Below are positions 6,867 to 59,962 of a stretch of 64,000 nt of DNA, in pieces. A model generated the notes under the pieces. It made no database searches, was not told where the DNA came from, and was given only the letters and a program-made list of their open reading frames with translations. The stretch lies in NCBI RefSeq assembly GCF_026586675.1, contig NZ_JAODIX010000028.1, positions 66,876-130,875 of the forward strand. The letters are read 5' to 3'. The position numbers and the translations under genes are program-made. Numbering within the stretch: position 1 is the stretch's first letter; each line of letters opens with the position of its first letter. Origin of the DNA: Halorubrum yunnanense (GTDB lineage: Archaea > Halobacteriota > Halobacteria > Halobacteriales > Haloferacaceae).

Positions 6867-8402
6867 CTACCGCGTATCGATCCCGGAAATGAATATCGCG
6901 AGTACCGGGACGATCTCCAGTCGGCCGATCCACATCAGGAAGATCATCAGCAACTTCGACGTGTTCGGGAAGAAGAGATAGCTCCCGAACGGCCCGAGCC
7001 GGCCGAATCCCGGTCCGATGTTCCCGATCGTCGCGAGCGACGCGCTGATCGACTCCAGTACCGACAGCTGAATTCCCACCCGGGTGGTGTCGAGCGCGAT
7101 GAACACCGCTGAGAGTGCGAACAGCGCGATGTACAGGAGGGTGAACGACATGATACCGCGGATCGCGTCCTCGTCGACGACGTTCCCGCCGAGCCGGACC
7201 GGCTGTACGACGTCGGGGTGCGCCGAGGTGAACAGCTCTCGGCGAATCGCCTTCGCGACGATGATCCATCGGACGATCTTGACTCCGCCACCCGTCGATC
7301 CGGCCGACCCGCCGATGAACATCACGAACAGGAGGAATATCTGCGCGTGTGCGTCCCACTGCGCGAAGTCAGCGGTGGCGAACCCGGTCGAGTTCATCAA
7401 CGATCCGACCTGGAACGCGGCCTGTCGGACCGAGTTCCCGGCGACTCCCTGCGTCGTCCCGCCGAGCTCGATCGGCGGAGCCGCACCGCGGAAGAGCAGG
7501 ATCGCGAGTACCGCGGTGATGACTGCGAGCGCCCCCGCGTACACGCGGAACTCCGCGTTCTCCAGCATCACCTCGGCTTCGCCCCGCAACACGTGCCAGA
7601 ACAGCGCGAAGTTGACCCCGGCGACGACCATGAACGGAATGACGACCCACTGTACCGCGGCCGAGAAGTACCCGATACTGTCGGCCTGCGGCGAGAACCC
7701 GCCGGTCGGGAGAGTGGAGAAGCCGTGCGCCACCGCGTTGTACAGGTCCATGTTCGGGGCCATCCCGAGGAGGTGGAGCGAGTACAGGAGCGCCGCGAGC
7801 AGCACGGTAAACCCGAAGTAGATGAGCCAGAGCGCACGCGCCGTCTCGGCTATCTTCGGCGTGAGCTTCTGGAGTTCCGGTCCCGGCGCCTCCGAATCCA
7901 TCAGCTGCGCGCCGTTGACCGCGACCTCCGGGAGGATGGCGATCATCAGCACGATGATCCCCATCCCCCCGAGCCACTGCGTGAGCTGTCGCCACATCAG
8001 CAGGGCGTGGGAGTGTTGGTCTGTGCTGATATTGCCGAGGACCGTCGCGCCCGTTGTGGTGAACCCGCTCATCGACTCGAACAGCGCGTTCACCGGGTGC
8101 GCAACCGTCGACGCCGTCCCGTACCCGGCGAGCATGTAGGGGATCGTGCCGAGGACCGCCGCCGCGAGCCACGCGAGCGAGACGAAAAGCAGGGCCTCGC
8201 GCGGGCCGAGGTCCGGGTCGGGATCGACCCGCTCGACCGCGAAGCCGAGCGCCGCGACGAGCGCCATCGACACCAGGAACACCCAGATGTCTTCGCCGTA
8301 CGCGAGCGCGACGATCAGCGGAACCAGCAGCGTGACGGCGAGGTACTTGATCCCGACCCCGAGAAGCCCCACGCTCGCCTTCCAGTTGACCCCCCACGAC
8401 AT
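6867..8402 (-). CDS. trkH: TrkH family potassium uptake protein (copy 1)
   Basis: A 511-residue membrane protein forming the K+-conducting subunit of the Trk system. It shows the four pore loops of the SKT superfamily with their filter glycines: SMSGFTTTGATVL near residue 115, STLPTGGFSPQAD near 230, MNSTGFATADF near 345 and NIGPGFGRLGP near 465. The gating-loop region GGSAGSTGGGVKIVRW precedes the third half. TrkH needs a cytosolic TrkA-type RCK subunit, encoded three genes upstream on the same strand. It lies 69 bp downstream of the second trkH gene. Confidence 0.95.
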   Translation of the reverse strand: MSWGVNWKASVGLLGVGIKYLAVTLLVPLIVALAYGEDIWVFLVSMALVAALGFAVERVDPDPDLGPREALLFVSLAWLAAAVLGTIPYMLAGYGTASTVAHPVNALFESMSGFTTTGATVLGNISTDQHSHALLMWRQLTQWLGGMGIIVLMIAILPEVAVNGAQLMDSEAPGPELQKLTPKIAETARALWLIYFGFTVLLAALLYSLHLLGMAPNMDLYNAVAHGFSTLPTGGFSPQADSIGYFSAAVQWVVIPFMVVAGVNFALFWHVLRGEAEVMLENAEFRVYAGALAVITAVLAILLFRGAAPPIELGGTTQGVAGNSVRQAAFQVGSLMNSTGFATADFAQWDAHAQIFLLFVMFIGGSAGSTGGGVKIVRWIIVAKAIRRELFTSAHPDVVQPVRLGGNVVDEDAIRGIMSFTLLYIALFALSAVFIALDTTRVGIQLSVLESISASLATIGNIGPGFGRLGPFGSYLFFPNTSKLLMIFLMWIGRLEIVPVLAIFISGIDTR

Positions 8403-8471
8403 AATTACTCGATCGATATGGGAGTCGCCCGTTCGCTGTATTAAACTGTCGAAGGGGGGATGGCGAGAGCC

Positions 8472-9974
8472 TCACGACGTCCAGAACGTCTTCGTGAGCA
8501 GCACGAGGACGGGGACGATCTCGATCCGGCCGACCCACATCAACACGATCATCACGGCCCGCGTCGTCATCGGGAACGTCGCGAACGTCCCGTAGGGGCC
8601 CGCGTCGCCGAACGCGGGCCCGATGTTGAGGAACGTCGTCGCCGCGGCGCCGAGCGCCTCGAACTCGTCCACCCGGGCGTCCGCCCGCTCGGCGTCGACG
8701 ACGATCACGATGGCCAGCAGGAAGAAGATGACGAGCGACAGGAGGAGGTACGCGTAGATGTCCCGGATCGCGTCCTCGTCGACGGTTTTCCCCGAGATCC
8801 GGACCGGCCGCACCGCCTCCGGGTGGACGGCCGTGAAGAGGTTCCGCTTGAACGACTTCATCGCGACGAGCCACCGGAGCGACTTGATCGAGCAGGTGGT
8901 CGACCCGACCATCCCGCCGATGAACATCCCCATGAACAGCATGTGCTTCGCCGCGGGCGCCCACTGTACGTAGTCGGTGCTCGCGTACCCCGTCGTCGTC
9001 ACGATGGACACGACGTTGAACACGGCGTGGCGGACCGTCCCCTCGGCCCCGAAGGTCGTGTTTGGGTCGAGGAACAGCCCGACCGCGACGATCGTCGCGA
9101 GCGTCGCCATTGCGCCGAGGTAGAAGTGGAACTCCTCGTTTTTTAAGAGGCGCATCGGCTCGCCGTTGATGGCGAAGTAGATGAGGACGAAGCTCGTCGA
9201 GCCGATCACCATGAACGGGACGACCGCCCACTGGATGAGCGGGTGGAACGCGCCGACGGAGAGCGGTTCGGGCGAGAACCCGGCAGTCGCGACCGAGGTG
9301 AACGCGTGCGCGACCGCGTTGTAGAGGCCCATCTGCGGGTCAACGGCGAGCCCCAACAGGAAGTAGACGACGACCGCGAGCCCCGTGAGTCCGAAGTAGA
9401 TCCCCCAGATGAGCTGCGCCGTCTGCGATATCTTCGGTGTGAGCTTGTTGACGTCCTCCGTCTGCGACTCCGTCTCCATGAGCTGTGCCCCCCCGACGCC
9501 GAGCTCGGAGAGCACCGCGGTCGCGAGGATGAGGATGCCGAGTCCGCCGAGCCACTGGATCACCTGCCGCCACATCATGATCGAGCGCGAGTGTAGCGAG
9601 AAGTCGCGCAGCACCGTCGCGCCCGTCGTCGTCAGCCCGCTCATCGCCTCGAACATCGCGTTCACCGGGTGTGCGACCGTGCCGACGCCGGCGACGGTAA
9701 ACGGGATCGCGCCGACCGCGGCGACGAGGAACCAGATCATCGCCACCGCGAGGAACGCCTCGCGGGGCCCGAGGTTCTGCTCCGGGTCCTGCACCGACCG
9801 GAACGCCGCGCCGAGCGCGAGCGAGACCGCAATCGCGGCGAGGAATGGAAGCGGCGACTCGCCGTAGTAAAGCGCGATCAGCAGCGGGAGCGCCAGCGGG
9901 ACCGGGAGCGCGGCGAGGACGTCGCCGGTGAGCCCCACGCTCGCCCGCCAGCCGACTCGGATCGTGGTGCTCAT
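8472..9974 (-). CDS. trkH: TrkH family potassium uptake protein (copy 2)
   Basis: A 500-residue paralogue of the adjacent TrkH with the same architecture. Pore loops are AMSGLTTTGATVL, TSVATAGFSPEPL, VTTTGYASTDYVQW and NIGPAFGDAGPYG. It differs from copy 1 in the intramembrane gate segment, GGMVGSTTCSIKSLRW, where a cysteine replaces the Gly-rich stretch. It begins only 7 bp after trkA, so the two are almost certainly co-translated and probably form the cognate pair. Two different TrkH subunits behind one TrkA suggest channels of different affinity or gating, which is inference. Confidence 0.95.
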   Translation of the reverse strand: MSTTIRVGWRASVGLTGDVLAALPVPLALPLLIALYYGESPLPFLAAIAVSLALGAAFRSVQDPEQNLGPREAFLAVAMIWFLVAAVGAIPFTVAGVGTVAHPVNAMFEAMSGLTTTGATVLRDFSLHSRSIMMWRQVIQWLGGLGILILATAVLSELGVGGAQLMETESQTEDVNKLTPKISQTAQLIWGIYFGLTGLAVVVYFLLGLAVDPQMGLYNAVAHAFTSVATAGFSPEPLSVGAFHPLIQWAVVPFMVIGSTSFVLIYFAINGEPMRLLKNEEFHFYLGAMATLATIVAVGLFLDPNTTFGAEGTVRHAVFNVVSIVTTTGYASTDYVQWAPAAKHMLFMGMFIGGMVGSTTCSIKSLRWLVAMKSFKRNLFTAVHPEAVRPVRISGKTVDEDAIRDIYAYLLLSLVIFFLLAIVIVVDAERADARVDEFEALGAAATTFLNIGPAFGDAGPYGTFATFPMTTRAVMIVLMWVGRIEIVPVLVLLTKTFWTS

Positions 9975-9981
9975 GGGTTTC

Positions 9982-11319
9982 TCACGCCATCGAGGTGATC
10001 GCGCTCACTGAGTCCGTCTCCACGAGCAGGATCACGTGATCGCCCGGTCGGAGGACGGTGTCTCCCCGAGGAGTGACGATCTCGTGGTCGCGCGTGATCG
10101 CGCCGATGACGAACCGCGCGTCGGTCTCGGCGACGATCTCCGAGATCGGCCGCCCGACGAGCCCGCACCCGTCGGTGAGCTCGAGCTCCAAGACCTCCGC
10201 CTGGTCGTTCTCCAGCACAGCGATGTTCTCTGCGACGCTCTCGTAGGTGAACCGCGTGATCTCCTCGGCGGTCACGGTGCGGGGGTTGATCGCGATGTCG
10301 ATCCCGATCTCCTCGAAGACGGTGACGTAGTCGGGGCTGTCGACGACCGCGATCACGCGGTCGACGCCGAGCCGCTTGGCGAGCACGGAGATGAGCAGGT
10401 TCTTTTCGTCGGACCGGAGCGCGGTGACGACGACGTCGGCCTCGTCGACGTGCTCGCGCGCGAGGAACTCGGTGTCCGTCGCGTCGTGTTCCATCACGAC
10501 GGTGTTCGGGAGGTTCTCCGCGAGCCAGCGCGCGCGGTCGGCGTCCCGCTCGATCAGCCGCGGCTCGAAGTCGATCTCCTCCAGCAGCCGCGCGGTCTGG
10601 TAGCCGATCTCGCTGCCGCCGACGACGACGATCTCGTCGGCGCGGCCGGGGGTCGTCTCGGGCGCGACGTCGGTCGCGAACCCCTGGACGCTCTCGGGGC
10701 TCCCGACCACGACCGCCCGGTCGCCGGCCTCGATACCGGTGTCCCCGCGCGGGATCGTCATCTCCCCGTCGCGGAACAGGCCCACGAAGGTGAGCGACTC
10801 GTAGCGGTCGGCCTCCAGGACCGTCTGTCCCGCGACCGGGCTCTCCTCGTCGACCTCGAACTCGGCCATCTGGACCAGCCCGCCGGCGAATGGGTCGACG
10901 TCGATCGCCGCCGGGAGCCCGATGACGCGGACGATGTTCTCCGCCGTCTGGAGGTCCGTACACACCATGAAGTCGACGCCGAAGGCGCCCTCGCTTCGGT
11001 TCCACGTCTGAAGGAAGTCGGTGCTTTTCACCCGGGCGATCGTGAACCCGTCGCCGAGCGTCTTCGCGGTGCCGCAGGCGACGAGGTTCGTCTGGTCGTT
11101 GTCGGTGCAGGCGATGACCATGTCCGCGCGGCCGACCTCTGCCGCCGTCTGGATGTCGGAGGTCGTGCCGTCGCCGGCGATGGTGAGTACGTCGAGCTCG
11201 TACTTTAGCTGTTCCGCGCGCTCGGGGTCGACGTCGACGACGACGACCTCGTGGTCAGACGCGAGGCTCGAAGCGATGCTCGTGCCGACCTCGCCGGCCC
11301 CGATGACGACCACATGCAT
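9982..11319 (-). CDS. trkA: TrkA, NAD-binding RCK regulator of potassium uptake
   Basis: A 445-residue cytosolic protein with two tandem RCK units, each a TrkA-N Rossmann domain plus TrkA-C. The first nucleotide-binding motif is VVIGAGEVGTSIA at the N-terminus, the second VVVGGSEIGYQTA near residue 228. Acidic residues closing the second strands (VDVD and IERD) favour NAD(H). TrkA gates TrkH by binding nucleotides. It is the first gene of the trkA-trkH-trkH-usp-usp run and lies 7 bp before a trkH gene. The gap to the upstream mscS gene is 122 bp and likely holds the promoter. Confidence 0.96.
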   Translation of the reverse strand: MHVVVIGAGEVGTSIASSLASDHEVVVVDVDPERAEQLKYELDVLTIAGDGTTSDIQTAAEVGRADMVIACTDNDQTNLVACGTAKTLGDGFTIARVKSTDFLQTWNRSEGAFGVDFMVCTDLQTAENIVRVIGLPAAIDVDPFAGGLVQMAEFEVDEESPVAGQTVLEADRYESLTFVGLFRDGEMTIPRGDTGIEAGDRAVVVGSPESVQGFATDVAPETTPGRADEIVVVGGSEIGYQTARLLEEIDFEPRLIERDADRARWLAENLPNTVVMEHDATDTEFLAREHVDEADVVVTALRSDEKNLLISVLAKRLGVDRVIAVVDSPDYVTVFEEIGIDIAINPRTVTAEEITRFTYESVAENIAVLENDQAEVLELELTDGCGLVGRPISEIVAETDARFVIGAITRDHEIVTPRGDTVLRPGDHVILLVETDSVSAITSMA

Positions 11320-11441
11320 GGGGACACCCAGTTACCGGACCCTCAAGTCGGTTACTATGCTGTCGCCGGGACCGCGGGGGCAAGGGAAGTGACCGGCGCC
11401 TCCCTGCCGCTCCCGGCTTCCGAGCCGCAGTCGAGCCCGCC

Positions 11442-12359
11442 TTACGACTCCCCGCCGCTCCCGGCCCGCGACGTCCCCCCGAACGACGAGGGCTCAGACC
11501 ACTCGTTCCGGCCCGAGACGGTGCGCTGCGGGAACGGGATCGAGATGTCCTCCTCGTCGAACCGCTTTTTCACGGCCTTCACGTAGTCGGCGCGAGCCTT
11601 GACGAAGTCGGCCCGCGACGGGTCGTCGATCCAGATCCGCGACTGCAGGCCGACGTACGAGTCCGCCAGCTCGATCAGTCGGACCGAGGGGGCGGGGTCG
11701 TCTACGATCGCGTCGCTCCTCTCGGCCTCCTCGACGATGATGTCGGTGGCCGTCTCGACGTCGTCCTCGTAGTCGATCCCGAAAACGAACTTCAGGCGTA
11801 GCGTCCCCTTCGCGACCGGGTTCTTCACCACGTCGCTCGTCAGGGCGTGGTTCGGCACCGTGAGCAGCTCGTTATCGAACGTTCGCACGCGGGTGACCCG
11901 GAGCGAGATGTCCTCGACGACTCCCGAGTTCCCCTGCCACTCGATCCAGTCGCCGATGCGGAACGGCTTGTCCGTGTAGATGAACACGCCCGCGACGAAG
12001 TTCTTGATCACGTCCTGGAGCGCGAAGCCGACGGCGAGCGTCGCCGCGGCCGCGATCGTCGCCAGCGAGCGCAGGAACCCCTGATACCCCGCCGCGCCGA
12101 ACGCGACCGTGACGCCTGCGAACAGCACGAGGAACGTGATGATCTTCTGGAGCGGCCGTCGCGCGTGCTCGTCGAGCCCCTGCCTGTCGAACAGCCGCTC
12201 GGTCAGCGGCTTGACGGCGGCCTTATAAATGACGTACGTTGCGGCGACGACAGCGAGGAAGGCCGCCGCGTCGATGGCCAGGGCGGTCAGCGGGCCGAGG
12301 TACGGCTCCAGCGCCCCCGCGACGGCGACGACCCCGTCCGGGCCGCCCGCGGCGCCCAT
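11442..12359 (-). CDS. mscS: MscS family small-conductance mechanosensitive channel
   Basis: A 305-residue membrane protein. Membrane segments lie at about 20-45, 72-92 and 100-125; the last contains the Ala/Gly-rich pore helix AAAATLAVGFALQDVIKNFV typical of MscS TM3. The cytoplasmic beta domain follows (FRIGDWIEWQGNSGVVEDIS). The C-terminal tail is Ser/Gly-rich. The open frame continues upstream, but the ATG at 12359 overlaps the stop of the YhbY-like gene as TGATG, so this start implies translational coupling. The channel releases solutes on hypo-osmotic shock and fits the neighbouring potassium genes. Confidence 0.92.
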   Translation of the reverse strand: MGAAGGPDGVVAVAGALEPYLGPLTALAIDAAAFLAVVAATYVIYKAAVKPLTERLFDRQGLDEHARRPLQKIITFLVLFAGVTVAFGAAGYQGFLRSLATIAAAATLAVGFALQDVIKNFVAGVFIYTDKPFRIGDWIEWQGNSGVVEDISLRVTRVRTFDNELLTVPNHALTSDVVKNPVAKGTLRLKFVFGIDYEDDVETATDIIVEEAERSDAIVDDPAPSVRLIELADSYVGLQSRIWIDDPSRADFVKARADYVKAVKKRFDEEDISIPFPQRTVSGRNEWSEPSSFGGTSRAGSGGES

Positions 12360-12604
12360 CAGTGGAGCACCGCGGTGTTCCCGCGCGTCTCCACGAGCTC
12401 CGCGTCGACGGCGTCGGCGAGCTCCGCGGCGAGCTCGTCGGTCGTGCTCCCGCCCCGGGCCGCCCGGAGGAACTTCACCTTCACGAGCTTGGCGTCGTCG
12501 AGCTGGTCGGCCGTCTCCTCGACGACGGCGTCGACGCCCTTTTTCCCGACCCAAACGGTGACGTCGAGGTCGTGCGCTTCCTTGCGAAGCTGTTGATCGC
12601 TCAT
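12359..12604 (-). CDS. YhbY/CRM-domain RNA-binding protein
   Basis: An 81-residue protein comprising a single CRM (CRS1-YhbY) KH-like domain. It has the family pattern of an early VTVWVGKKGVD strand-turn, standing for the usual IGKxG loop, then LVKVKFLRAARGG. CRM proteins bind structured RNA and are linked to ribosome assembly and tRNA processing. Its stop overlaps the start of mscS by one base. Upstream lies a gap of 111 bp to the SHOCT gene. Confidence 0.85.
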   Translation of the reverse strand: MSDQQLRKEAHDLDVTVWVGKKGVDAVVEETADQLDDAKLVKVKFLRAARGGSTTDELAAELADAVDAELVETRGNTAVLH

Positions 12605-12715
12605 ACGTCGTTCGAGTCGGCCGCGCGCATTGAAGCTTGAGGTTCGCGGTTGCGGGGGCGGTCGCGGCCCGTGAGCGTCTCCCGCCGGCCCGTCTCCCCG
12701 ATACGCCCCCTTCCG

Positions 12716-13120
12716 TCACCGCTCGCGTTCGACGTCGCGTTCCCGCTCCCGTGGTCGCTCCCGTTGGGCGTACTCGGCGGCGTCTTCCGGCGTTTCCGTC
12801 TCCAGCAGCCGGTCGAGCTTCCGATCGAACTGCTCGTCGGTGAGCTCGCCCTCGGCGTACCGGGCTCGGAGCCGGTCAAGCGCGTCCCGAGCGTGCCCGG
12901 ACCTCTCGTCGCCCGCGTCGTCTTCGACCGGCTCGTCCGCCTCTTCGTCTTCGAACACCATCGCGACCACGGGTACGACGACGATATAGCCGAACAGCAT
13001 TAGCGGAAGCCACCACTCAAAGTCGAGGAACATCGCCGCGAGCCACGTTCCCGTCACGACCGCTCCCGCGACCCCACTCGCGTTTCGACTGAACCGCTCG
13101 CGTATGGAGGACTCCAGCAT
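12716..13120 (-). CDS. SHOCT-domain small membrane protein
   Basis: A 134-residue protein with two adjacent hydrophobic helices at about 15-50, an acidic linker (residues 55-75) and a C-terminal SHOCT motif, ALDRLRARYAEGELTDEQFD, at about 80-100. The tail is a very charged Arg/Glu run. The frame is open far upstream, where it only shadows the transporter gene on the same strand; the ATG at 13120 gives a sensible membrane protein. SHOCT motifs mediate oligomerisation in many short membrane proteins. Specific function unknown. Confidence 0.8.
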   Translation of the reverse strand: MLESSIRERFSRNASGVAGAVVTGTWLAAMFLDFEWWLPLMLFGYIVVVPVVAMVFEDEEADEPVEDDAGDERSGHARDALDRLRARYAEGELTDEQFDRKLDRLLETETPEDAAEYAQRERPRERERDVERER

Positions 13121-54305: not shown

Positions 54306-56417
54306 TCACTCATTCTGTTCGGTGGGCAGCGACGTCGATTTGCGCATCGACTCCGAGAGGCGTCTCGGCTCGACCGAAAACGAGTGGACGGTCGCGAGGT
54401 CGTCGACGAGCGAGACGACGGTCTCGATCGACCGCTCCGCCCGCCGGAGTTCCGCCTCCGACCCCGTCTCGGCCGCGGCGTCCAAGCGCTCGCTCGCCTC
54501 CTGTAGCGGGACCTTGAGGTCCTCGGCGAACACCTCGCCGAACTCGGCCAGGTGGCGCTCGATCTCCTGCTCGTGTTCTTTCGACTCCGTGACATCTTGA
54601 ACGAAACCGACGGCGTGTGTCGCGTCGCCGTTCGCATCGACCACTGGCCCGACGTCGATTCGGCCCCAGTAGGGCGTGCCGTCCGCCCGGTGAAGCACCG
54701 CGGTCCGCGAGCGATCCTCGCCCGCCCCGAGCGCCGACTCCAGCTCTCGCATGCGATCCCCGTCCGTGTCGGGCCCGCCGAGCACCGAGACCCCCTCGCC
54801 GGCGACCGAATCGCGGTCGTAGCCCGTGATCGCTTCGAACCTGTCGTTCACATACGTTATGGGGGCGTCCTCGCCCGTCGTCTCGTGTATCGCGATCCCG
54901 ACCGGCGCGGCCTCGATGGCTCTGTTCCTCAGCCGGAGCTCCCGCTCGCGCCGCTTCCGAACCGTGATATCGGTCGCGATGCCGACGATACGCGTCAGCT
55001 CGCCGTCCTCGTAGACGCCGGACGACTGGTCGTGGACCCACCGGACCTCGCCGTCCGGGTGGACCACGCGGTACGTCTCCTCGTACGCGTCCGGATCCTC
55101 GCGCTGCTCGGCCAGCGCCGCCTCGACCCTGTCGCGGTCGTCGGGGTGAATCGCCTCGACGAACGACATGGCGTCCTCGTCCAAGCTCTCCGGCGGGACC
55201 CCCCACACGTCCTCGTAGGAGTCGCTGATGAAGTCCATCGACTCCTTGCCGGGGGTCGACATCCAGATGACCTCGCCGGCGTTCGCCTGGATCTGATCGA
55301 GCATGCTCGCCCGCTCTTCCCGCTCCGTCACGTCGAGGGCCAGGCCGATCACGCGACCGACCGTACCCGTTTCGTCTAACAGCGGCTGGAGCCACGTTTC
55401 GAGCGTCGAGTCGGGGAGTTCGACGATCCCGTGGCTCGACTCGCCCTCGAGGGCGGCCTCGACGTTCCGTCGCATCCGCGGCCGGTCGGCGAAGGCCTCC
55501 GCGACGGAGTCCCCCCGTGAGATCCCTCTTCGGAGCCGCTGTGACAGGGTCCCGCCGCGAACCGTCGACACCGTCCCGTCGGGCTCGACCTCGAACAGCG
55601 TCAGCGGCGCGCTGTCGACGATCGTCTCGACGGCCTGACGGAGCCGCAACAGCCGGTCCTCGCGTTCGCGCCGCTCGGTCACGTCCCGCCCGATACCGAC
55701 GATTCCCCGGGGCGTCCCGTCCGAGCCGGTCACGACGGCCCCCGTGAACTCTATCGGCGTCCTCGCGCCGCCCTTCGAGACCAGCTCCGCCTCGACGGCC
55801 GCGCTCCCGGTCTCGATCACGGTCTCGATCGCGTCCGCGATCCGGTCCCTGTCGGGGCCGGCGAAGAGGTCCAGCGCGTGCATCCCCTCCAGCTCGTCGT
55901 CGTCGTAGCCGCTGAGCTCGCAGAACTGGTCGTTCCACCGCCTGAGCGTGCCGTCGGTGCCGAGCGTGTAAAACGAGTCGTCGATGGCGTCGAGCAGCCT
56001 CTCCGTCGACTCGGACGCGAGCGACGAGTCGACCGGCGTGGTCGCGACCGTGTCCATCCGGCGGGCGAGCAGCGCCGTCTCGTCGACGCCCTCTCGAGGG
56101 ACCAGTACGTCGGTCGCCCCGGCCGCGAGCAGGTCGTCGACCGCGTCGTCGTCGGGGACGATCACGAGCGACGGGACGTCGGGGAACGCCTCGCGGACCT
56201 CGACGAAGGGGCCGACCCCGGGCCCCGCTCCCGCCTCACAGACGACCAGCCGAACGTCGGGCAGGTCCCGCGAGGAGAGGTCGGTCGCCCCGTCACCGAC
56301 GGACAGGACGCCGTCGGGGCCGGAGACGACCGTCGACTCCGCGGCCGCTTCGCGGACCCGCTCCGCGTCGGAGCCAACGTGAACTACCGCGTGACCTGAC
56401 TCCCTCCGAGGCTCCAT
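54306..56417 (-). CDS. Multi-PAS sensor with N-terminal receiver-like domain and no kinase ATPase domain
   Basis: A 703-residue cytosolic sensor. Residues 10-125 resemble a receiver (VVHVGSDAERV; VRLVVCEAGAG at the phosphoacceptor strand lacks the Asp). Four PAS domains follow (about 140-255, 260-365, 370-485, 490-610), ending with GIGRDVTERRERE-type linkers. The final 85 residues look like a HisKA helix pair, FGEVFAEDLKVPLQEASERL, in which the phospho-His is absent; the HATPase domain is missing. A TATA box (TTTTATAAT) lies about 25 bp upstream. It probably signals by protein contact, perhaps through the adjacent HalX protein. Confidence 0.85.
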   Translation of the reverse strand: MEPRRESGHAVVHVGSDAERVREAAAESTVVSGPDGVLSVGDGATDLSSRDLPDVRLVVCEAGAGPGVGPFVEVREAFPDVPSLVIVPDDDAVDDLLAAGATDVLVPREGVDETALLARRMDTVATTPVDSSLASESTERLLDAIDDSFYTLGTDGTLRRWNDQFCELSGYDDDELEGMHALDLFAGPDRDRIADAIETVIETGSAAVEAELVSKGGARTPIEFTGAVVTGSDGTPRGIVGIGRDVTERREREDRLLRLRQAVETIVDSAPLTLFEVEPDGTVSTVRGGTLSQRLRRGISRGDSVAEAFADRPRMRRNVEAALEGESSHGIVELPDSTLETWLQPLLDETGTVGRVIGLALDVTEREERASMLDQIQANAGEVIWMSTPGKESMDFISDSYEDVWGVPPESLDEDAMSFVEAIHPDDRDRVEAALAEQREDPDAYEETYRVVHPDGEVRWVHDQSSGVYEDGELTRIVGIATDITVRKRRERELRLRNRAIEAAPVGIAIHETTGEDAPITYVNDRFEAITGYDRDSVAGEGVSVLGGPDTDGDRMRELESALGAGEDRSRTAVLHRADGTPYWGRIDVGPVVDANGDATHAVGFVQDVTESKEHEQEIERHLAEFGEVFAEDLKVPLQEASERLDAAAETGSEAELRRAERSIETVVSLVDDLATVHSFSVEPRRLSESMRKSTSLPTEQNE

Positions 56418-56873
56418 ACGGACTCGTCCGAGAAGAATTATAAAACAGTATAGCGCAAATTATCAGCGTTGAATACTGACACGGGGGACGGTCCCGCGCC
56501 GACCCCGGGTCCCCGGAACTGCCGACGGTCGGACGGAGCGGTCGATATCCGCGGCGCCGGCGGCACCGTCCCGTCAAGTGTGGGATCGGGGATGTCGCTC
56601 TCGGACGCGGTCACGGCGGAGAAGGGGGTCGGACGCGACCGTGACCTACGAGAAGTCGACCACTCGCGTCGCTCGCGCTGCGACTTCTCTACTTCAGATC
56701 GCTTGCGTTCGGTTCCCTCACCGCATCGCTGTCGCTCCGCGGTTCAGTGTACGGGCCGGGCGCGATTTGAACACACGGTCGGACGTGCTCACTGCGTTGC
56801 GCGCGACCTCCCTGCGTTCAAATCGTGCCTGCCGGTTCGCTCGACGGTTCGCGCCGCTCACCGTCTCGCAGTA
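56418..56873. other. Intergenic region with a duplicated tRNA-Lys 3' fragment
   Basis: This 456-bp gap holds the PAS-sensor promoter, low-complexity CGCTTGCGTTCGG-like stretches, and at 56749-56774 a 26-nt copy, GTACGGGCCGGGCGCGATTT plus GAACAC, of the 3' end of the neighbouring tRNA-Lys (56871-56896). A second partial T-loop-like CGTTCAAATCGTGCC occurs near 56815-56829. No protein gene is supported. Confidence 0.6.
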
Positions 56874-56947
56874 CGGGCCGGGCGCGATTTGAACACGCGA
56901 CCGACGGATTAAGAGTCCGTCGCTCTCCCTAACTGAGCTACCGGCCC
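56874..56947 (-). tRNA. tRNA-Lys (CTT)
   Basis: A 74-nt tRNA. Acceptor GGGCCGG pairs CCGGCCC, D stem GCTC/GAGC, anticodon stem ACGGA/TCCGT with loop CTCTTAA (anticodon CTT at 56911-56913), T arm GCGTG-TTCAAAT-CGCGC, discriminator G. No intron and no encoded CCA. Confidence 0.95.
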
Positions 56948-57085
56948 TCATTCATTTCTACCCGTGTCGAGGTAAAAGACCTTTTCATTCGACGACGGCG
57001 TCTCGTTTGCCCCTCGGCCCGCTCCCTCGCCGGCCTTCTGCGGAGAGCGCACTCGTTAAGTGTCGTCCGGGAAAAATTGCGGCCA

Positions 57086-58549
57086 ATGAGTAGTGGCGCA
57101 TCCGGTTCGGCGCGGACGCGATACGCGATCCTCGGCTGCGGCAGCGTCGGCCACGCGGTCGCGGAGGAGCTGACGGGTCGCGGCAAGGACGTTCTCATCC
57201 TCGACCGCGACGAGAGCCGCGTCGAGGCACTCCGCGACCAGGACCTCAACGCCCGCGTCCAGGACATCGTCGAGCCCGACGTCGTCGACGCGATCAACGC
57301 CCGCGACATCGTGTTGATCCTCTCGAGCGACGTCGAGGCCAACAAGGCGGCCGTCTCGGCAATCCGCGACACCGGTGGCGACCACTACCTCGTCGCCCGC
57401 GCCTCCGACCCCGTCAGCGAGGACGAGCTGCGCGAGCGCGGCGCCGACGTGGTGATCAACCCCTCGACGGTGATCGCCGACAGCGCGCTCCAGTCGCTCG
57501 AGACGGGCGAGCTGGAGTACATGGCGCGCCAGCTCGCCGAGATAATCGAGGATGGCGACGGCCGGATGGCCATCCTGACCCACGACAACCCCGAGCCGGA
57601 CTCGATCGCGTCGGCGACCGCCCTCCAGGCGATCGCGGACGCGTTCGGCGTCGAGGCCGACATCCTCTACTCCGGCGACGTGGGCCACCAAGAGAACCGG
57701 GCGTTCGTCAACCTCCTCGGCATCGACCTCGTGGCGCGGTCGGAGGCCCCGGACCTCTCCGAGTACGAGACGATCGCCGCGGTCGACCTCGCGAAGTCGG
57801 CGGAAGACGGGTTGGACTTCGACGTCGATATCGACATCTACGTCGACCACCTGGAGGCGGACGTCCCGTTCGACGCCCGGTTCGTCGACGTGCGGACCAA
57901 CGTCTCCTCGACGTCGACGATCCTCACGAAGTACCTCCAGGAGTTCGACCAGTCACCGACCGAGGCGGTCGCGACCGCCCTCCTCTACGGCATCCGCGCC
58001 GAGACGCTCGACTTCAAGCGGGACACGACGCCCGCGGACCTGACGGCGGCCGCCTACCTCCACCCGTTCGCGAACCACGACACGCTCGAACAGGTGGAGT
58101 CCCCGTCGATGAGCCCCGAGACGCTGGACGTGCTCGCGGAGGCGATCCAGAACCGCGAGGTCCAGGGGAGCCACCTCTTCTCGACCGCCGGCTTCATCCG
58201 GGACCGCGAGGCGCTCGCGCAGGCCGCCCAACACCTCCTGAACTTGGAGGGGATCACGACGACCGCCGTCCTCGGGATCGCCGACGACAACATCTACCTC
58301 GCCGCGCGCTCGAAGGACATCCGGCTCAACATCGGAAACGTCCTCGACGAGGCGTTCTCGGAGATGGGCGACGCGGCCGGCCACTCCACGCAGGGCTCGC
58401 TGTCCATCCCGCTCGGCATCTTCACCGGCATCGAGTCGAGCGGCGAGAACCGCGACACCCTCCTCCACCTCACCGAGGAGGCGGTCCGGCGGAAGCTGTT
58501 CGACGCCCTCGGCGTCGAGGGCGGCGGCGACGGCGGGAACGGGTCGTAG
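57086..58549 (+). CDS. TrkA-N / DHH / DHHA1 protein, candidate cyclic-di-AMP phosphodiesterase
   Basis: A 487-residue cytosolic protein. The TrkA-N Rossmann domain (about 12-130) starts ILGCGSVGHAVAEEL. The DHH phosphoesterase domain (about 140-330) has MAILTHDNPEPDSIASA and IDIYVDHLEADVPF, where DHL stands for the usual DHH. The DHHA1 part (about 340-470) includes HSTQGS. DHH-DHHA1 proteins hydrolyse c-di-AMP or nanoRNA, and joining to a K+-channel-type RCK domain points to c-di-AMP, which controls potassium uptake in many prokaryotes. Activity is inferred. A TATA-like CGTTAAGTG lies about 30 bp upstream. Confidence 0.85.
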   Translation: MSSGASGSARTRYAILGCGSVGHAVAEELTGRGKDVLILDRDESRVEALRDQDLNARVQDIVEPDVVDAINARDIVLILSSDVEANKAAVSAIRDTGGDHYLVARASDPVSEDELRERGADVVINPSTVIADSALQSLETGELEYMARQLAEIIEDGDGRMAILTHDNPEPDSIASATALQAIADAFGVEADILYSGDVGHQENRAFVNLLGIDLVARSEAPDLSEYETIAAVDLAKSAEDGLDFDVDIDIYVDHLEADVPFDARFVDVRTNVSSTSTILTKYLQEFDQSPTEAVATALLYGIRAETLDFKRDTTPADLTAAAYLHPFANHDTLEQVESPSMSPETLDVLAEAIQNREVQGSHLFSTAGFIRDREALAQAAQHLLNLEGITTTAVLGIADDNIYLAARSKDIRLNIGNVLDEAFSEMGDAAGHSTQGSLSIPLGIFTGIESSGENRDTLLHLTEEAVRRKLFDALGVEGGGDGGNGS

Positions 58550-58651
58550 CGCGACCGAGTGACCGCGAACGGCGACGGGGCACCGCCCCCGACTCCCGAT
58601 CCGTTTTACTCGTCCGAACCGTGATAGCCACACGCGCACGGCGCGACCACC

Positions 58652-58864
58652 ATGCACGTCCCGGAGGACCAGCCCGCGACCTGTCCCGCCTGCGGCGACC
58701 CCTACGAGTCGGTGTCCCGACACGCCGACGGGTTTGTCGTCAATCTCCTCGACAACGAGCGGTATCAGCGGGTGTGTTTCGACCCCGCGAGCGACGGCGA
58801 CGGCCCCGCGCTGGACTGTTATCACCACACCCACGGGCAGGCCGGGAGCCAGCCGGGCGAGTAG
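58652..58864 (+). CDS. Small haloarchaeal zinc-ribbon protein (70 aa)
   Basis: A 70-residue protein with an N-terminal knuckle ATCPACGDPYESV, a central strand GFVVNLLDNERYQRVCF and a C-terminal CYHHTHGQ, giving a Cys/His set for one zinc. Composition and length fit small conserved haloarchaeal proteins. It lies 102 bp after the DHH gene on the same strand and is convergent with the nucleotidyltransferase. Function unknown. Confidence 0.75.
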   Translation: MHVPEDQPATCPACGDPYESVSRHADGFVVNLLDNERYQRVCFDPASDGDGPALDCYHHTHGQAGSQPGE

Positions 58865-58987
58865 CTACCGGCGGACGAATGGGTGATCGGGTAGCGCGAA
58901 ACTTCGCGGCTCGGCGCCGCGAGCGACGTGTGACGGGTCCCCGCCGTCTCCGCTTATAAACCGGGGCCCGCTGAAAGTCGACGTGGA

Positions 58988-59962
58988 TTAGAAGTCGTCG
59001 CCCTCGGTGATCGAGGTGTACGATCCGATCAGCGCGCCGGAGAGGTCGACCCCTTCGAGGGTGGCGCCCGTGTCGATCACGGAGTTACCGATCTCGGAGT
59101 CGGTGATCGTCGCGTCGGGGAAGACGACGGAGCGGTCGAGCGTCGAGTCGGTGACGGTCGCGCCCGACATGACGTGGACCACGTCGCCGAGCTCGGCGCC
59201 CTCAACGGTCGCGTCGTCGGCGACGAGCGCGCCGCCCTCCAAGGCGTACTCGACCGCGTCGAGGTAGCTGTCGGCGGTGCCGATGTCGAACCACGCGCCG
59301 TCGAACGTGAACGCGTAGACGGGCCCGCGCTCCTGGAGCCACTGCAGGAACCAGCCCGGCTCGTCCGGGTTGTTGTCGTCTTCGAGGTAGGTCGTGAGCT
59401 TCGGGAGCGTCTCCGCGGGGAACGCGTAACAGGCGATGGAGACGAGCGTGCTCTTCGGATCGTCCGGCTTCTCCTGGAAGTTCACCACCTCGTCGCCGTC
59501 GAGCTCGACGAGCCCGTACGACTCGGCGCGCTCGCGGTCCTCGACGTCGTAGGCCGCCAGCGTCGGCGTCCCCTTCGCCTCGAAGAAGTCGGTGAAGTCG
59601 CCGAGGTCGAAGCTGATCATGTTGTCGCCGGCGACGACGACGAGGTCGTCGTCGACGTCCTCGCGGTCGACGAGCTGCTCGAGCGCCCCCACGACGCCGA
59701 ACTTCTCGTCTTCCTCGACGGTCTCCTCGACCGAGAGCGTCGGCTTCTCGAACTGGCTGTCGGCGATGTACTCGTCGAACGTCTCGGCGAAGCGTTCGTT
59801 GGTGGAGACGAACACCTCGTCGACGCGGTCGTCCGCCTCCAAGTCCTCGAATATCTCGTCGATGACGGTGTTGTCGCCGACCGGCAGGAACATCTTCGGT
59901 CGGTCCTCGGTGATCGGCCAGAGTCTGGTCGCGTAACCTCCCGCGAGTACGACGGCTTTCAT
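58988..59962 (-). CDS. Sugar-1-phosphate nucleotidyltransferase
   Basis: A 324-residue enzyme that activates a sugar-1-phosphate with UTP or dTTP. The nucleotide signature is AVVLAGGYATRLWPITEDRP at the N-terminus, the metal-binding Asp is in VVVAGDNMISFDLGDF near 115, and FQEKPDDPKS is near 165. A short left-handed beta-helix of hexapeptide repeats (about 240-320) ends the protein. Haloarchaeal relatives feed S-layer glycosylation (AglF-like UTP--glucose-1-phosphate uridylyltransferase), but no other glycosylation genes are nearby. Confidence 0.9.
   Translation of the reverse strand: MKAVVLAGGYATRLWPITEDRPKMFLPVGDNTVIDEIFEDLEADDRVDEVFVSTNERFAETFDEYIADSQFEKPTLSVEETVEEDEKFGVVGALEQLVDREDVDDDLVVVAGDNMISFDLGDFTDFFEAKGTPTLAAYDVEDRERAESYGLVELDGDEVVNFQEKPDDPKSTLVSIACYAFPAETLPKLTTYLEDDNNPDEPGWFLQWLQERGPVYAFTFDGAWFDIGTADSYLDAVEYALEGGALVADDATVEGAELGDVVHVMSGATVTDSTLDRSVVFPDATITDSEIGNSVIDTGATLEGVDLSGALIGSYTSITEGDDF

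What the first reader, a model, noticed from the sequence alone, without database searches (positions are those of the whole stretch)
57086..58549. RCK-linked DHH/DHHA1 enzyme as candidate archaeal c-di-AMP phosphodiesterase
Haloarchaea make c-di-AMP but the degrading enzyme is not well defined. This protein joins a potassium-channel-type nucleotide sensor to a DHH phosphoesterase, and the DHH motif itself reads DHL. A Trk locus lies 46 kb away in the same window.
Basis: partly seen in the sequence, partly recalled or inferred. Interest (0 to 1): 0.55.

Follow-up and report, generated by a model that had tools for sequence, protein, structure and literature searches.

The report
Haloarchaeal pseudo-phosphodiesterase with nucleotide sensor
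This salt-loving archaeon's gene belongs to a family that is probably the archaeal counterpart of the bacterial enzyme GdpP, which breaks down the messenger c-di-AMP, but the copies in this group have worn-out catalytic residues and an intact nucleotide sensor, so it is more likely a regulator than the enzyme itself.

Summary
Window 57086-58549 (+) encodes a 487-residue TrkA_N(RCK_N)-DHH-DHHA1 protein whose DHH motif reads DHL, in a Halorubrum-type genome that also encodes DacZ.

Interpretation: partly supported.

(1) At family level the c-di-AMP link gains support. Across 245 Halobacteriota genomes, RCK-DHH and the diadenylate-cyclase domain are both present in 220 and both absent in 16, with 9 discordant. 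The co-absences fall in two lineages: a whole family (11 of 11 sampled) and part of one genus (10 of 10 genomes concordant). Those genomes keep other DHH genes. The nearest solved relative of the DHH-DHHA1 part is GdpP.

(2) For this protein the enzyme claim weakens. Of 116 distinct haloarchaeal orthologues none keeps the full catalytic set and only 6 keep the second DHH histidine; non-haloarchaeal orthologues are intact (22 of 23). The gene is under purifying selection.

(3) A second haloarchaeal RCK-DHH paralogue, also in this genome, shows the reverse: catalytic site intact (20 of 20), RCK nucleotide site mostly lost (2 of 20 intact).

Best reading: a nucleotide-sensing pseudo-phosphodiesterase, perhaps paired with its catalytic paralogue. 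No activity is shown. The general candidate idea was already in print; this is a new variant of a known kind.

The parts
57086..58549 (+). RCK_N-DHH-DHHA1 gene, 487 aa (haloarchaeal orthologue, called A here)
   Evidence: whole-gene dN/dS about 0.07-0.23 against seven Halorubrum-type and near orthologues
57122..57463 (+). TrkA_N / RCK_N domain, residues 13-126
   Evidence: E 3.2e-21; model matches KtrA rings with ATP/ADP, Z about 18
57134..57151 (+). GxGxxG nucleotide-binding loop (G17, G19, G22); with D40 at 57203-57205 intact in 116 of 116 distinct haloarchaeal orthologues
57566..57994 (+). DHH domain, residues 161-303
   Evidence: E 2.1e-8
57581..57601 (+). motif I, H166 D N P E170 P D172: first Asp ligand replaced by Glu
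57785..57787 (+). motif II Asp ligand D234, kept
57845..57853 (+). DHH triad reading D254 H255 L256: the substrate-phosphate His is lost
   Evidence: role of the His from PMC11229311 (passage seen)
58001..58003 (+). motif IV E306 in place of Asp (also Glu in 6 of 23 non-haloarchaeal orthologues, so not diagnostic by itself)
58187..58399 (+). DHHA1 domain, residues 368-438
   Evidence: 24.4 bits
58373..58384 (+). A430-A431-G432-H433 in place of the A-GGH substrate motif

Best explanation
The gene is the haloarchaeal orthologue of an RCK_N-DHH-DHHA1 family of Halobacteriota that is probably the archaeal counterpart of GdpP and works in c-di-AMP turnover. In non-haloarchaeal members one chain carries both an intact RCK_N nucleotide sensor and an intact two-metal DHH site, so ATP/ADP or NAD(H) binding could set the rate of c-di-AMP hydrolysis. 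In haloarchaea these roles have come apart. This protein (A) keeps the sensor, the fold and part of the pocket but has lost catalytic residues, so it most likely binds nucleotide, and perhaps c-di-AMP or pApA, without cutting it efficiently. A paralogue (B), or in some lineages a stand-alone DHH protein, keeps the active site. A may regulate B by forming mixed dimers or rings. Shown: architecture, orthology, residue loss, reciprocal pattern, purifying selection, co-loss with the cyclase domain. Inferred: substrate, inactivity, ligand binding, the A-B partnership.
For: Architecture. Co-occurrence over 245 genomes: 220 both, 16 neither, 3 cyclase only, 6 RCK-DHH only (Fisher 1.4e-17, genomes not independent); one genus 10 of 10 concordant. 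Losers keep 3-5 other DHH genes. Nearest solved relative GdpP: non-haloarchaeal DHH-DHHA1 profile E 3.9e-17, the window's own part 1.4e-5, predicted model Z 23.7. Full catalytic set: 0 of 116 distinct haloarchaeal A, 22 of 23 other A, 20 of 20 B, 6 of 6 stand-alone; RCK nucleotide site 116 of 116, 23 of 23, and 2 of 20 (B). Of 37 columns conserved in 49 intact sequences, haloarchaeal A departs strongly at 8, most of them at or beside the active site. Haloarchaeal A is one clade, SH-aLRT 99. dN/dS low in all domains. Precedent: H. volcanii RecJ3 with RecJ4, which lacks active-site residues (PMC10470531, passages).
Against: No biochemistry. D172, D234, H255 and usually H166 remain, and Asp-to-Glu may be tolerated, so residual activity is possible; 6 of 116 keep the second His. 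Nine genomes break the co-occurrence, one of them (G078, cyclase domain absent) a single-contig genome at 99% completeness. Co-absence amounts to only two lineages. No conserved gene neighbourhood. B is absent in 4 of 56 genomes that carry A. B is not clearly a recent duplicate of A, so the reciprocal pattern may be two independent histories. The AlphaFold model is middling (pLDDT 74.7, pTM 0.63).
Confidence: 0.5

Rival explanations
1. A is itself an active c-di-AMP phosphodiesterase in haloarchaea, with an active site adapted (Glu for Asp, hydrophobic residue for the second His) rather than lost.
For: Metal-2 ligands D172, D234 and H255 are almost always kept; Glu at motif IV occurs in otherwise intact orthologues (6 of 23) and in all 6 stand-alone proteins; strong purifying selection; co-occurrence with the cyclase domain.
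Against: The second DHH His is lost in 110 of 116 distinct sequences and replaced by 13 different residues, as expected of a site no longer constrained; alanine there or at the metal ligands nearly abolished activity in DrRecJ-like (PMC11229311). Metal-1 positions also erode: H166 lost in 15 of 116, D170 changed in 52 of 116.
Confidence: 0.2
2. The family acts on pApA, nanoRNA or pAp rather than on c-di-AMP; the tie to the cyclase reflects clearing the linear product.
For: NrnA/Pde2, TmPDE and DhhP structures also match the model (Z 19-21), and DHH-DHHA1 proteins often prefer pApA or nanoRNA (PMC5575661 passage; PMC11229311).
Against: The sequence profile prefers GdpP over its whole length (3.9e-17) to NrnA-type proteins (1e-7 for Rv2837c). 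Lineages that lack RCK-DHH lack the cyclase domain too, and all cells need nanoRNA clearance, so co-loss argues for a signalling substrate.
Confidence: 0.17
3. A is a scaffold or regulator unrelated to c-di-AMP, for example of K+ transport or of another DHH nuclease, as RecJ4 is for RecJ3.
For: RecJ4 precedent in H. volcanii (PMC10470531); an RCK_N domain of the K+-transport type; a Trk locus in the window.
Against: No conserved linkage to Trk or other genes; orthologues outside haloarchaea have an intact active site and co-occur with the cyclase domain.
Confidence: 0.13

Closest known systems
GdpP (bacterial c-di-AMP phosphodiesterase; PDB 5xsi/5xsp/5xt3, 9n0l)
   Same: DHH-DHHA1 part is the nearest solved relative by sequence profile and by predicted fold; sensor domain fused in front of the catalytic module; shares the 'LL-LEGI' stretch before the DHHA1 core in the printed alignment
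   Different: RCK_N in place of the sensor part of GdpP (PAS and degenerate GGDEF, recalled); the window copy lacks the intact catalytic set
TrkA/KtrA RCK regulators
   Same: RCK_N domain with GxGxxG and acidic residue; model matches KtrA with ATP/ADP
   Different: No TrkA_C (RCK_C) domain, the known c-di-AMP binding part of such proteins (PMC5575661 passage); fused to DHH-DHHA1
Archaeoglobus fulgidus 'exopolyphosphatase-related protein' (PDB 3llv)
   Same: NAD(P)-binding domain, best PDB sequence match of the N-terminal part (1.1e-12)
   Different: Only the N-terminal domain was solved; no function known from it
NrnA/Pde2/DhhP/TmPDE stand-alone DHH-DHHA1 phosphodiesterases
   Same: Same two-domain fold and metal-ligand pattern
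   Different: No sensor domain; weaker sequence match
H. volcanii RecJ3/RecJ4
   Same: A haloarchaeal DHH pair, one member lacking active-site residues, acting together (PMC10470531)
   Different: RecJ/HAN-type nucleases; no RCK_N domain is mentioned in the passages seen

Membership tests
GdpP-type c-di-AMP phosphodiesterases | DHH-DHHA1 module closest to GdpP | tested here: met
   Best PDB match of the window's DHH-DHHA1 part (1.4e-5), of the non-haloarchaeal profile (3.9e-17) and of the model (Z 23.7)
GdpP-type c-di-AMP phosphodiesterases | Intact H-x3-D-x-D / D / DHH / D and GGH catalytic set | tested here: not met
   Window copy: E170, L256, E306, A431. Non-haloarchaeal orthologues 22 of 23 intact, Glu allowed at 306
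GdpP-type c-di-AMP phosphodiesterases | N-terminal membrane-PAS-GGDEF sensor part (recalled) | tested here: not met
   Pfam scan at E up to 1 shows TrkA_N there, no PAS or GGDEF; membrane helices not tested
GdpP-type c-di-AMP phosphodiesterases | Hydrolysis of c-di-AMP | not testable with these tools
   Needs purified protein
RCK (TrkA/KtrA) regulators of K+ transport | RCK_N domain with nucleotide-binding loop | tested here: met
   TrkA_N 3.2e-21; G17, G19, G22, D40
RCK (TrkA/KtrA) regulators of K+ transport | RCK_C / TrkA_C domain | tested here: not met
   No PF02080 among the 21 families listed up to E 1
RCK (TrkA/KtrA) regulators of K+ transport | Gene linkage to a K+ channel or transporter | tested here: not met
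   Trk locus is 46 kb away; no recurring neighbour with K+ function recognised by eye among the clusters of 47 loci
PgpH-type HD phosphodiesterases (as alternative c-di-AMP degrader in these genomes) | 7TM-7TMR_HD domain in the genome | tested here: not met
   0 of 20 archaeal genomes incl. the window's own; control rings in 4 of 14 named genomes
NrnA/nanoRNase family | Stand-alone DHH-DHHA1 with nanoRNase activity | tested here: inconclusive
   Fold shared but fused to RCK_N and weaker in profile; activity untested

The most novel reading that the evidence does not exclude
In haloarchaea the archaeal GdpP counterpart has been split between two paralogues by reciprocal degeneration: A (this gene) is the sensor subunit, with RCK_N nucleotide site intact and catalytic site worn out, and B is the catalytic subunit, with active site intact and RCK nucleotide site lost. 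They work as a mixed complex in which A reads ATP/ADP or NAD(H), and perhaps c-di-AMP itself, to gate hydrolysis by B, in cells that keep molar K+.
Probability: 0.28. Interest if true: 0.75.

Novelty: new variant of a known kind. Interest (0 to 1): 0.55.

Why it matters
H. volcanii DacZ is essential and its overexpression lethal (PMC6741144, abstract and passages), yet the enzymes that degrade c-di-AMP there were reported as unknown in 2021 (PMC8646023 passage). The sequence evidence points to a family that comes and goes with the cyclase and ranks the candidates in haloarchaea: paralogue B as catalyst, this gene as probable regulator. That turns an open question into a small set of gene removals and assays. 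If the sensor/catalyst split holds, it would be an unusual case of one signalling enzyme divided by complementary decay.

Tried and rejected
Gene neighbourhood as a clue: none recurs outside close relatives (neighbours of the window gene recur in at most 26 of 90 loci, and among the 50 loci with under 80% identity only a PAS gene recurs, once; in 47 loci the most frequent other gene cluster is in 10). Trk linkage: distance only, no evidence of function. Motif-IV Asp-to-Glu as a sign of inactivity: rejected as a sole criterion, since 6 of 23 non-haloarchaeal orthologues and all 6 stand-alone proteins have Glu. Pseudogene: rejected, low dN/dS in all domains for the 7 pairs with finite dS of 8 tried. 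Co-occurrence inside haloarchaea: uninformative, the cyclase domain is in 292 of 292 class genomes (one, G043, weakly at 3.6e-6). Other archaeal phyla could not be reached with the handles at hand. Rfam search of 56300-59100 gave only the tRNA. NCBIfam gave no family above its cut-off among the 25 of 86 rows shown.

Rows dropped before counts: L001 (same gene as L071), L002 (third DHH type, about 31% identity) and L003 (duplicate of the window gene) were left out of the motif census, and the extra DHH hit of L183 was kept apart as 'other'. The census has 140 haloarchaeal A rows, which include 30 rows of the window's genus from one source, the window gene itself and repeats of the same species from two sources; 116 are distinct, and I quote those. 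The tree used 82 rows: 33 of the 140 haloarchaeal A, all 23 non-haloarchaeal A, 20 B, 6 stand-alone. The structure alignment used the window protein and 48 of the 78 usable named loci. 'RCK-DHH absent' means best E worse than 1e-20 (19 of 245, 5 of them without any match); a nearer query gave the same answer for the 19. Two of the 22 cyclase-lacking genomes are not printed by name; I took them as G271 and G285 because these two are missing from its list of matches. The 52-of-56 count for B is my reading of the listing. Fisher's p treats related genomes as independent and overstates the case; the honest count is two lineages of co-absence.

Full report
Observation. The frame at 57086-58549 (+) encodes 487 residues with TrkA_N (residues 13-126, E 3.2e-21), DHH (161-303, 2.1e-8) and a sub-threshold DHHA1 (368-438, 24.4 bits against a cut-off of 25.9). 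There is no TrkA_C, PAS or GGDEF among the 21 families listed. The DHH triad reads D254-H255-L256. The Trk locus is real: TrkA 9982-11319 and two TrkH genes 6867-9974, all on the minus strand, next to an MscS-type gene at 11442-12719. The window lies in a 3.17-Mb genome, 99.36% complete, whose nearest named relatives are Halorubrum. That genome has five DHH hits and one clear diadenylate-cyclase domain, whose frame lies beside an MscS-like frame, as described for dacZ of H. volcanii (PMC6741144 passages).

What the family is. Orthologues of this protein (A) are found at full length in 56 of 59 related genomes (the three without are 70-84% complete) and, at 42-51% identity, through most other Halobacteriota. 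By sequence profile the DHH-DHHA1 part of 17 non-haloarchaeal orthologues matches GdpP best over nearly its whole length (5xsi, 3.9e-17; GdpP 9n0l, 1.3e-15). Pyrophosphatases match nearly as strongly (8.3e-17) but only over the DHH half, and NrnA-type Rv2837c far less (1e-7). The window's own part has GdpP first too, at lower strength (1.4e-5). The AlphaFold2 model (49 sequences, pLDDT 74.7, pTM 0.63) is matched best by GdpP (Foldseek 2.9e-15; Z 23.7 over 309 residues, 21% identity). The large rmsd (13.8 A) suggests that the two domains are set differently; matches of the DHH domain alone lie at 2.6-3.1 A. The RCK part matches KtrA with ATP or ADP at 1.4-1.5 A over about 118 residues.

Link to c-di-AMP. 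I scored the same 245 genomes of the phylum (completeness 90% or more) for A with the window protein and for the diadenylate-cyclase domain PF02457. Both are present in 220 and both absent in 16. Three have the cyclase only (G064, G096, G251) and six have A only (G073, G078, G129, G143, G206, G255). Fisher's exact test gives 1.4e-17, but genomes are related. The 16 co-absences fall in two lineages: all 11 sampled genomes of family f32, and five of seven genomes of genus g55, whose other two keep both. Enlarging g55 to 10 genomes gave 10 of 10 concordant: 2 with both and 8 with neither (three of the eight are only 73-84% complete). In G160 the two genes lie on different contigs, so one deletion is an unlikely cause. 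The losing genomes keep three to five other DHH genes, so the loss is specific. Discordant genomes are mostly 91-97% complete, but G078 (99%, one contig) has A and no cyclase domain. No PgpH-type domain was found in 20 archaeal genomes. Within the class Halobacteria the cyclase domain is in 292 of 292 genomes, so co-occurrence cannot be tested there.

Catalytic residues. PMC11229311 (passages) gives H34, D38, D40, D95, H121 and D171 as metal ligands in DrRecJ-like, and the second DHH histidine H122 as the residue that probably holds the substrate phosphate; alanine at these positions almost abolished activity. By alignment the equivalents here are 166, 170, 172, 234, 255, 306 and 256 (equivalence by motif, not by superposing coordinates). 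Scoring eleven positions, including D254 and the GGH triplet and allowing Glu at 306: 22 of 23 non-haloarchaeal A, 20 of 20 B and 6 of 6 stand-alone proteins are intact; of 116 distinct haloarchaeal A sequences none is. The second His is kept in 6 of 116, H166 in 101, D170 in 64 (48 have Glu). Outside the window's genus, counting one sequence per species, 5 of 30 keep the second His. The window copy reads H, E, D, D, D, H, L, E, A, G, H. The change is focused: of 37 columns conserved at 97% or more in 49 intact sequences, haloarchaeal A keeps 29 at 96% or more and departs at eight (274, 241, 256, 431, 239, 375, 170, 166), most of them at or beside the active site. Glu at 306 is not diagnostic, since intact relatives have it too.

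History and constraint. In a tree of the DHH-DHHA1 part with active-site columns removed, haloarchaeal A is one group (SH-aLRT 99), next to non-haloarchaeal A; B and the stand-alone proteins are separate groups (99 each) (unrooted, quick method). Pairwise dN/dS of the window gene against Halorubrum-type and near orthologues is low in RCK, DHH and DHHA1 alike (whole-gene dN 0.022-0.136 against dS 0.24-0.82 in the seven pairs with finite dS). So A is not a decaying gene.

Reciprocal pattern. The RCK nucleotide site (G17, G19, G22 and an acidic residue at 40) is intact in 116 of 116 distinct haloarchaeal A and 23 of 23 non-haloarchaeal A, but in only 2 of 20 B proteins; a separate realignment of the RCK parts shows the same by eye. 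B has the intact catalytic site. B is found in 52 of 56 haloarchaeal genomes that carry A; three of the other four (G042, G044, G057) have a stand-alone DHH protein, and the fourth, G033, shows neither in the listing. In this genome B is at G000:C61:16926-18305 (L071), and its best solved match is also GdpP (9.3e-11). I read this as division of labour: A senses, B cuts. A haloarchaeal precedent for an active/inactive DHH pair is RecJ3/RecJ4 (PMC10470531, passages).

Mechanism proposed. In intact family members, RCK_N binding of ATP/ADP or NAD(H) would change the oligomer and so the rate at which the two-metal DHH site opens c-di-AMP to pApA. In haloarchaea A would supply the sensing and B the chemistry. 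Shown by sequence: domain order, orthology, residue states, selection, co-loss. Inferred: substrate, inactivity of A, ligands, physical pairing.

What is known. PMC8305020 (passages) lists three H. volcanii genes as predicted c-di-AMP phosphodiesterase candidates citing He et al. 2020, and says the degrading enzyme had not been identified; PMC8646023 (passage) says the same. He et al. 2020 and Yin et al. 2020 were not held. From memory, reviews have mentioned RCK_N-DHH-DHHA1 proteins in archaea; that is recall, not a test. In ten full-text searches (listings only, save the papers named here) I saw no experimental test of an archaeal RCK-DHH protein and no report of the active-site erosion or reciprocal pattern; most subscription papers are outside that library.

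Verdict. The family is a good candidate for the archaeal c-di-AMP phosphodiesterase. This haloarchaeal copy is more likely a nucleotide-sensing pseudo-phosphodiesterase, and its intact paralogue the enzyme.

Noticed in passing
56749-56774 and 56871-56896: A stretch of 26 bases that overlaps the 3' end of the tRNA-Lys gene (56874-56947, minus strand) recurs identically 122 bases further upstream, as if a tRNA end had been duplicated, for example by an integration. Seen by eye.
   Followed up: no
L007 (G000:C56:4975-5214): A second, weak diadenylate-cyclase-domain match (24.2 bits, under the cut-off) in this genome; nearly all window-genus genomes also show two matches. Its frame holds an RHMS stretch.
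   Followed up: no
family f32 (11 genomes) and genus g55 (8 of 10 genomes): Halobacteriota lineages that appear to lack both the diadenylate-cyclase domain and RCK-DHH, so perhaps live without c-di-AMP.
   Followed up: partly
G078: Single-contig genome, 99% complete, with RCK-DHH but no diadenylate-cyclase match: a natural exception worth a look.
   Followed up: no
G043: Cyclase domain only at E 3.6e-6 in a single-contig haloarchaeal genome, while its A protein (L160) is one of the few that keep the second DHH His.
   Followed up: no
6867-12719: Trk locus (TrkA and two TrkH) next to an MscS-type channel gene, all on the minus strand.
   Followed up: partly
L048, L049, L058, L059, L061, L062, L069: In seven non-haloarchaeal loci the A gene has nearby a frame (249 aa in L049) that looks like tRNA-His guanylyltransferase (by eye, not scanned), and in eight loci a membrane zinc-protease-like frame.
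   Followed up: no
54306-56417 (-): 703-aa multi-PAS sensor protein upstream of the tRNA, facing away from the finding; its neighbourhood with A is not kept outside close relatives.
   Followed up: partly
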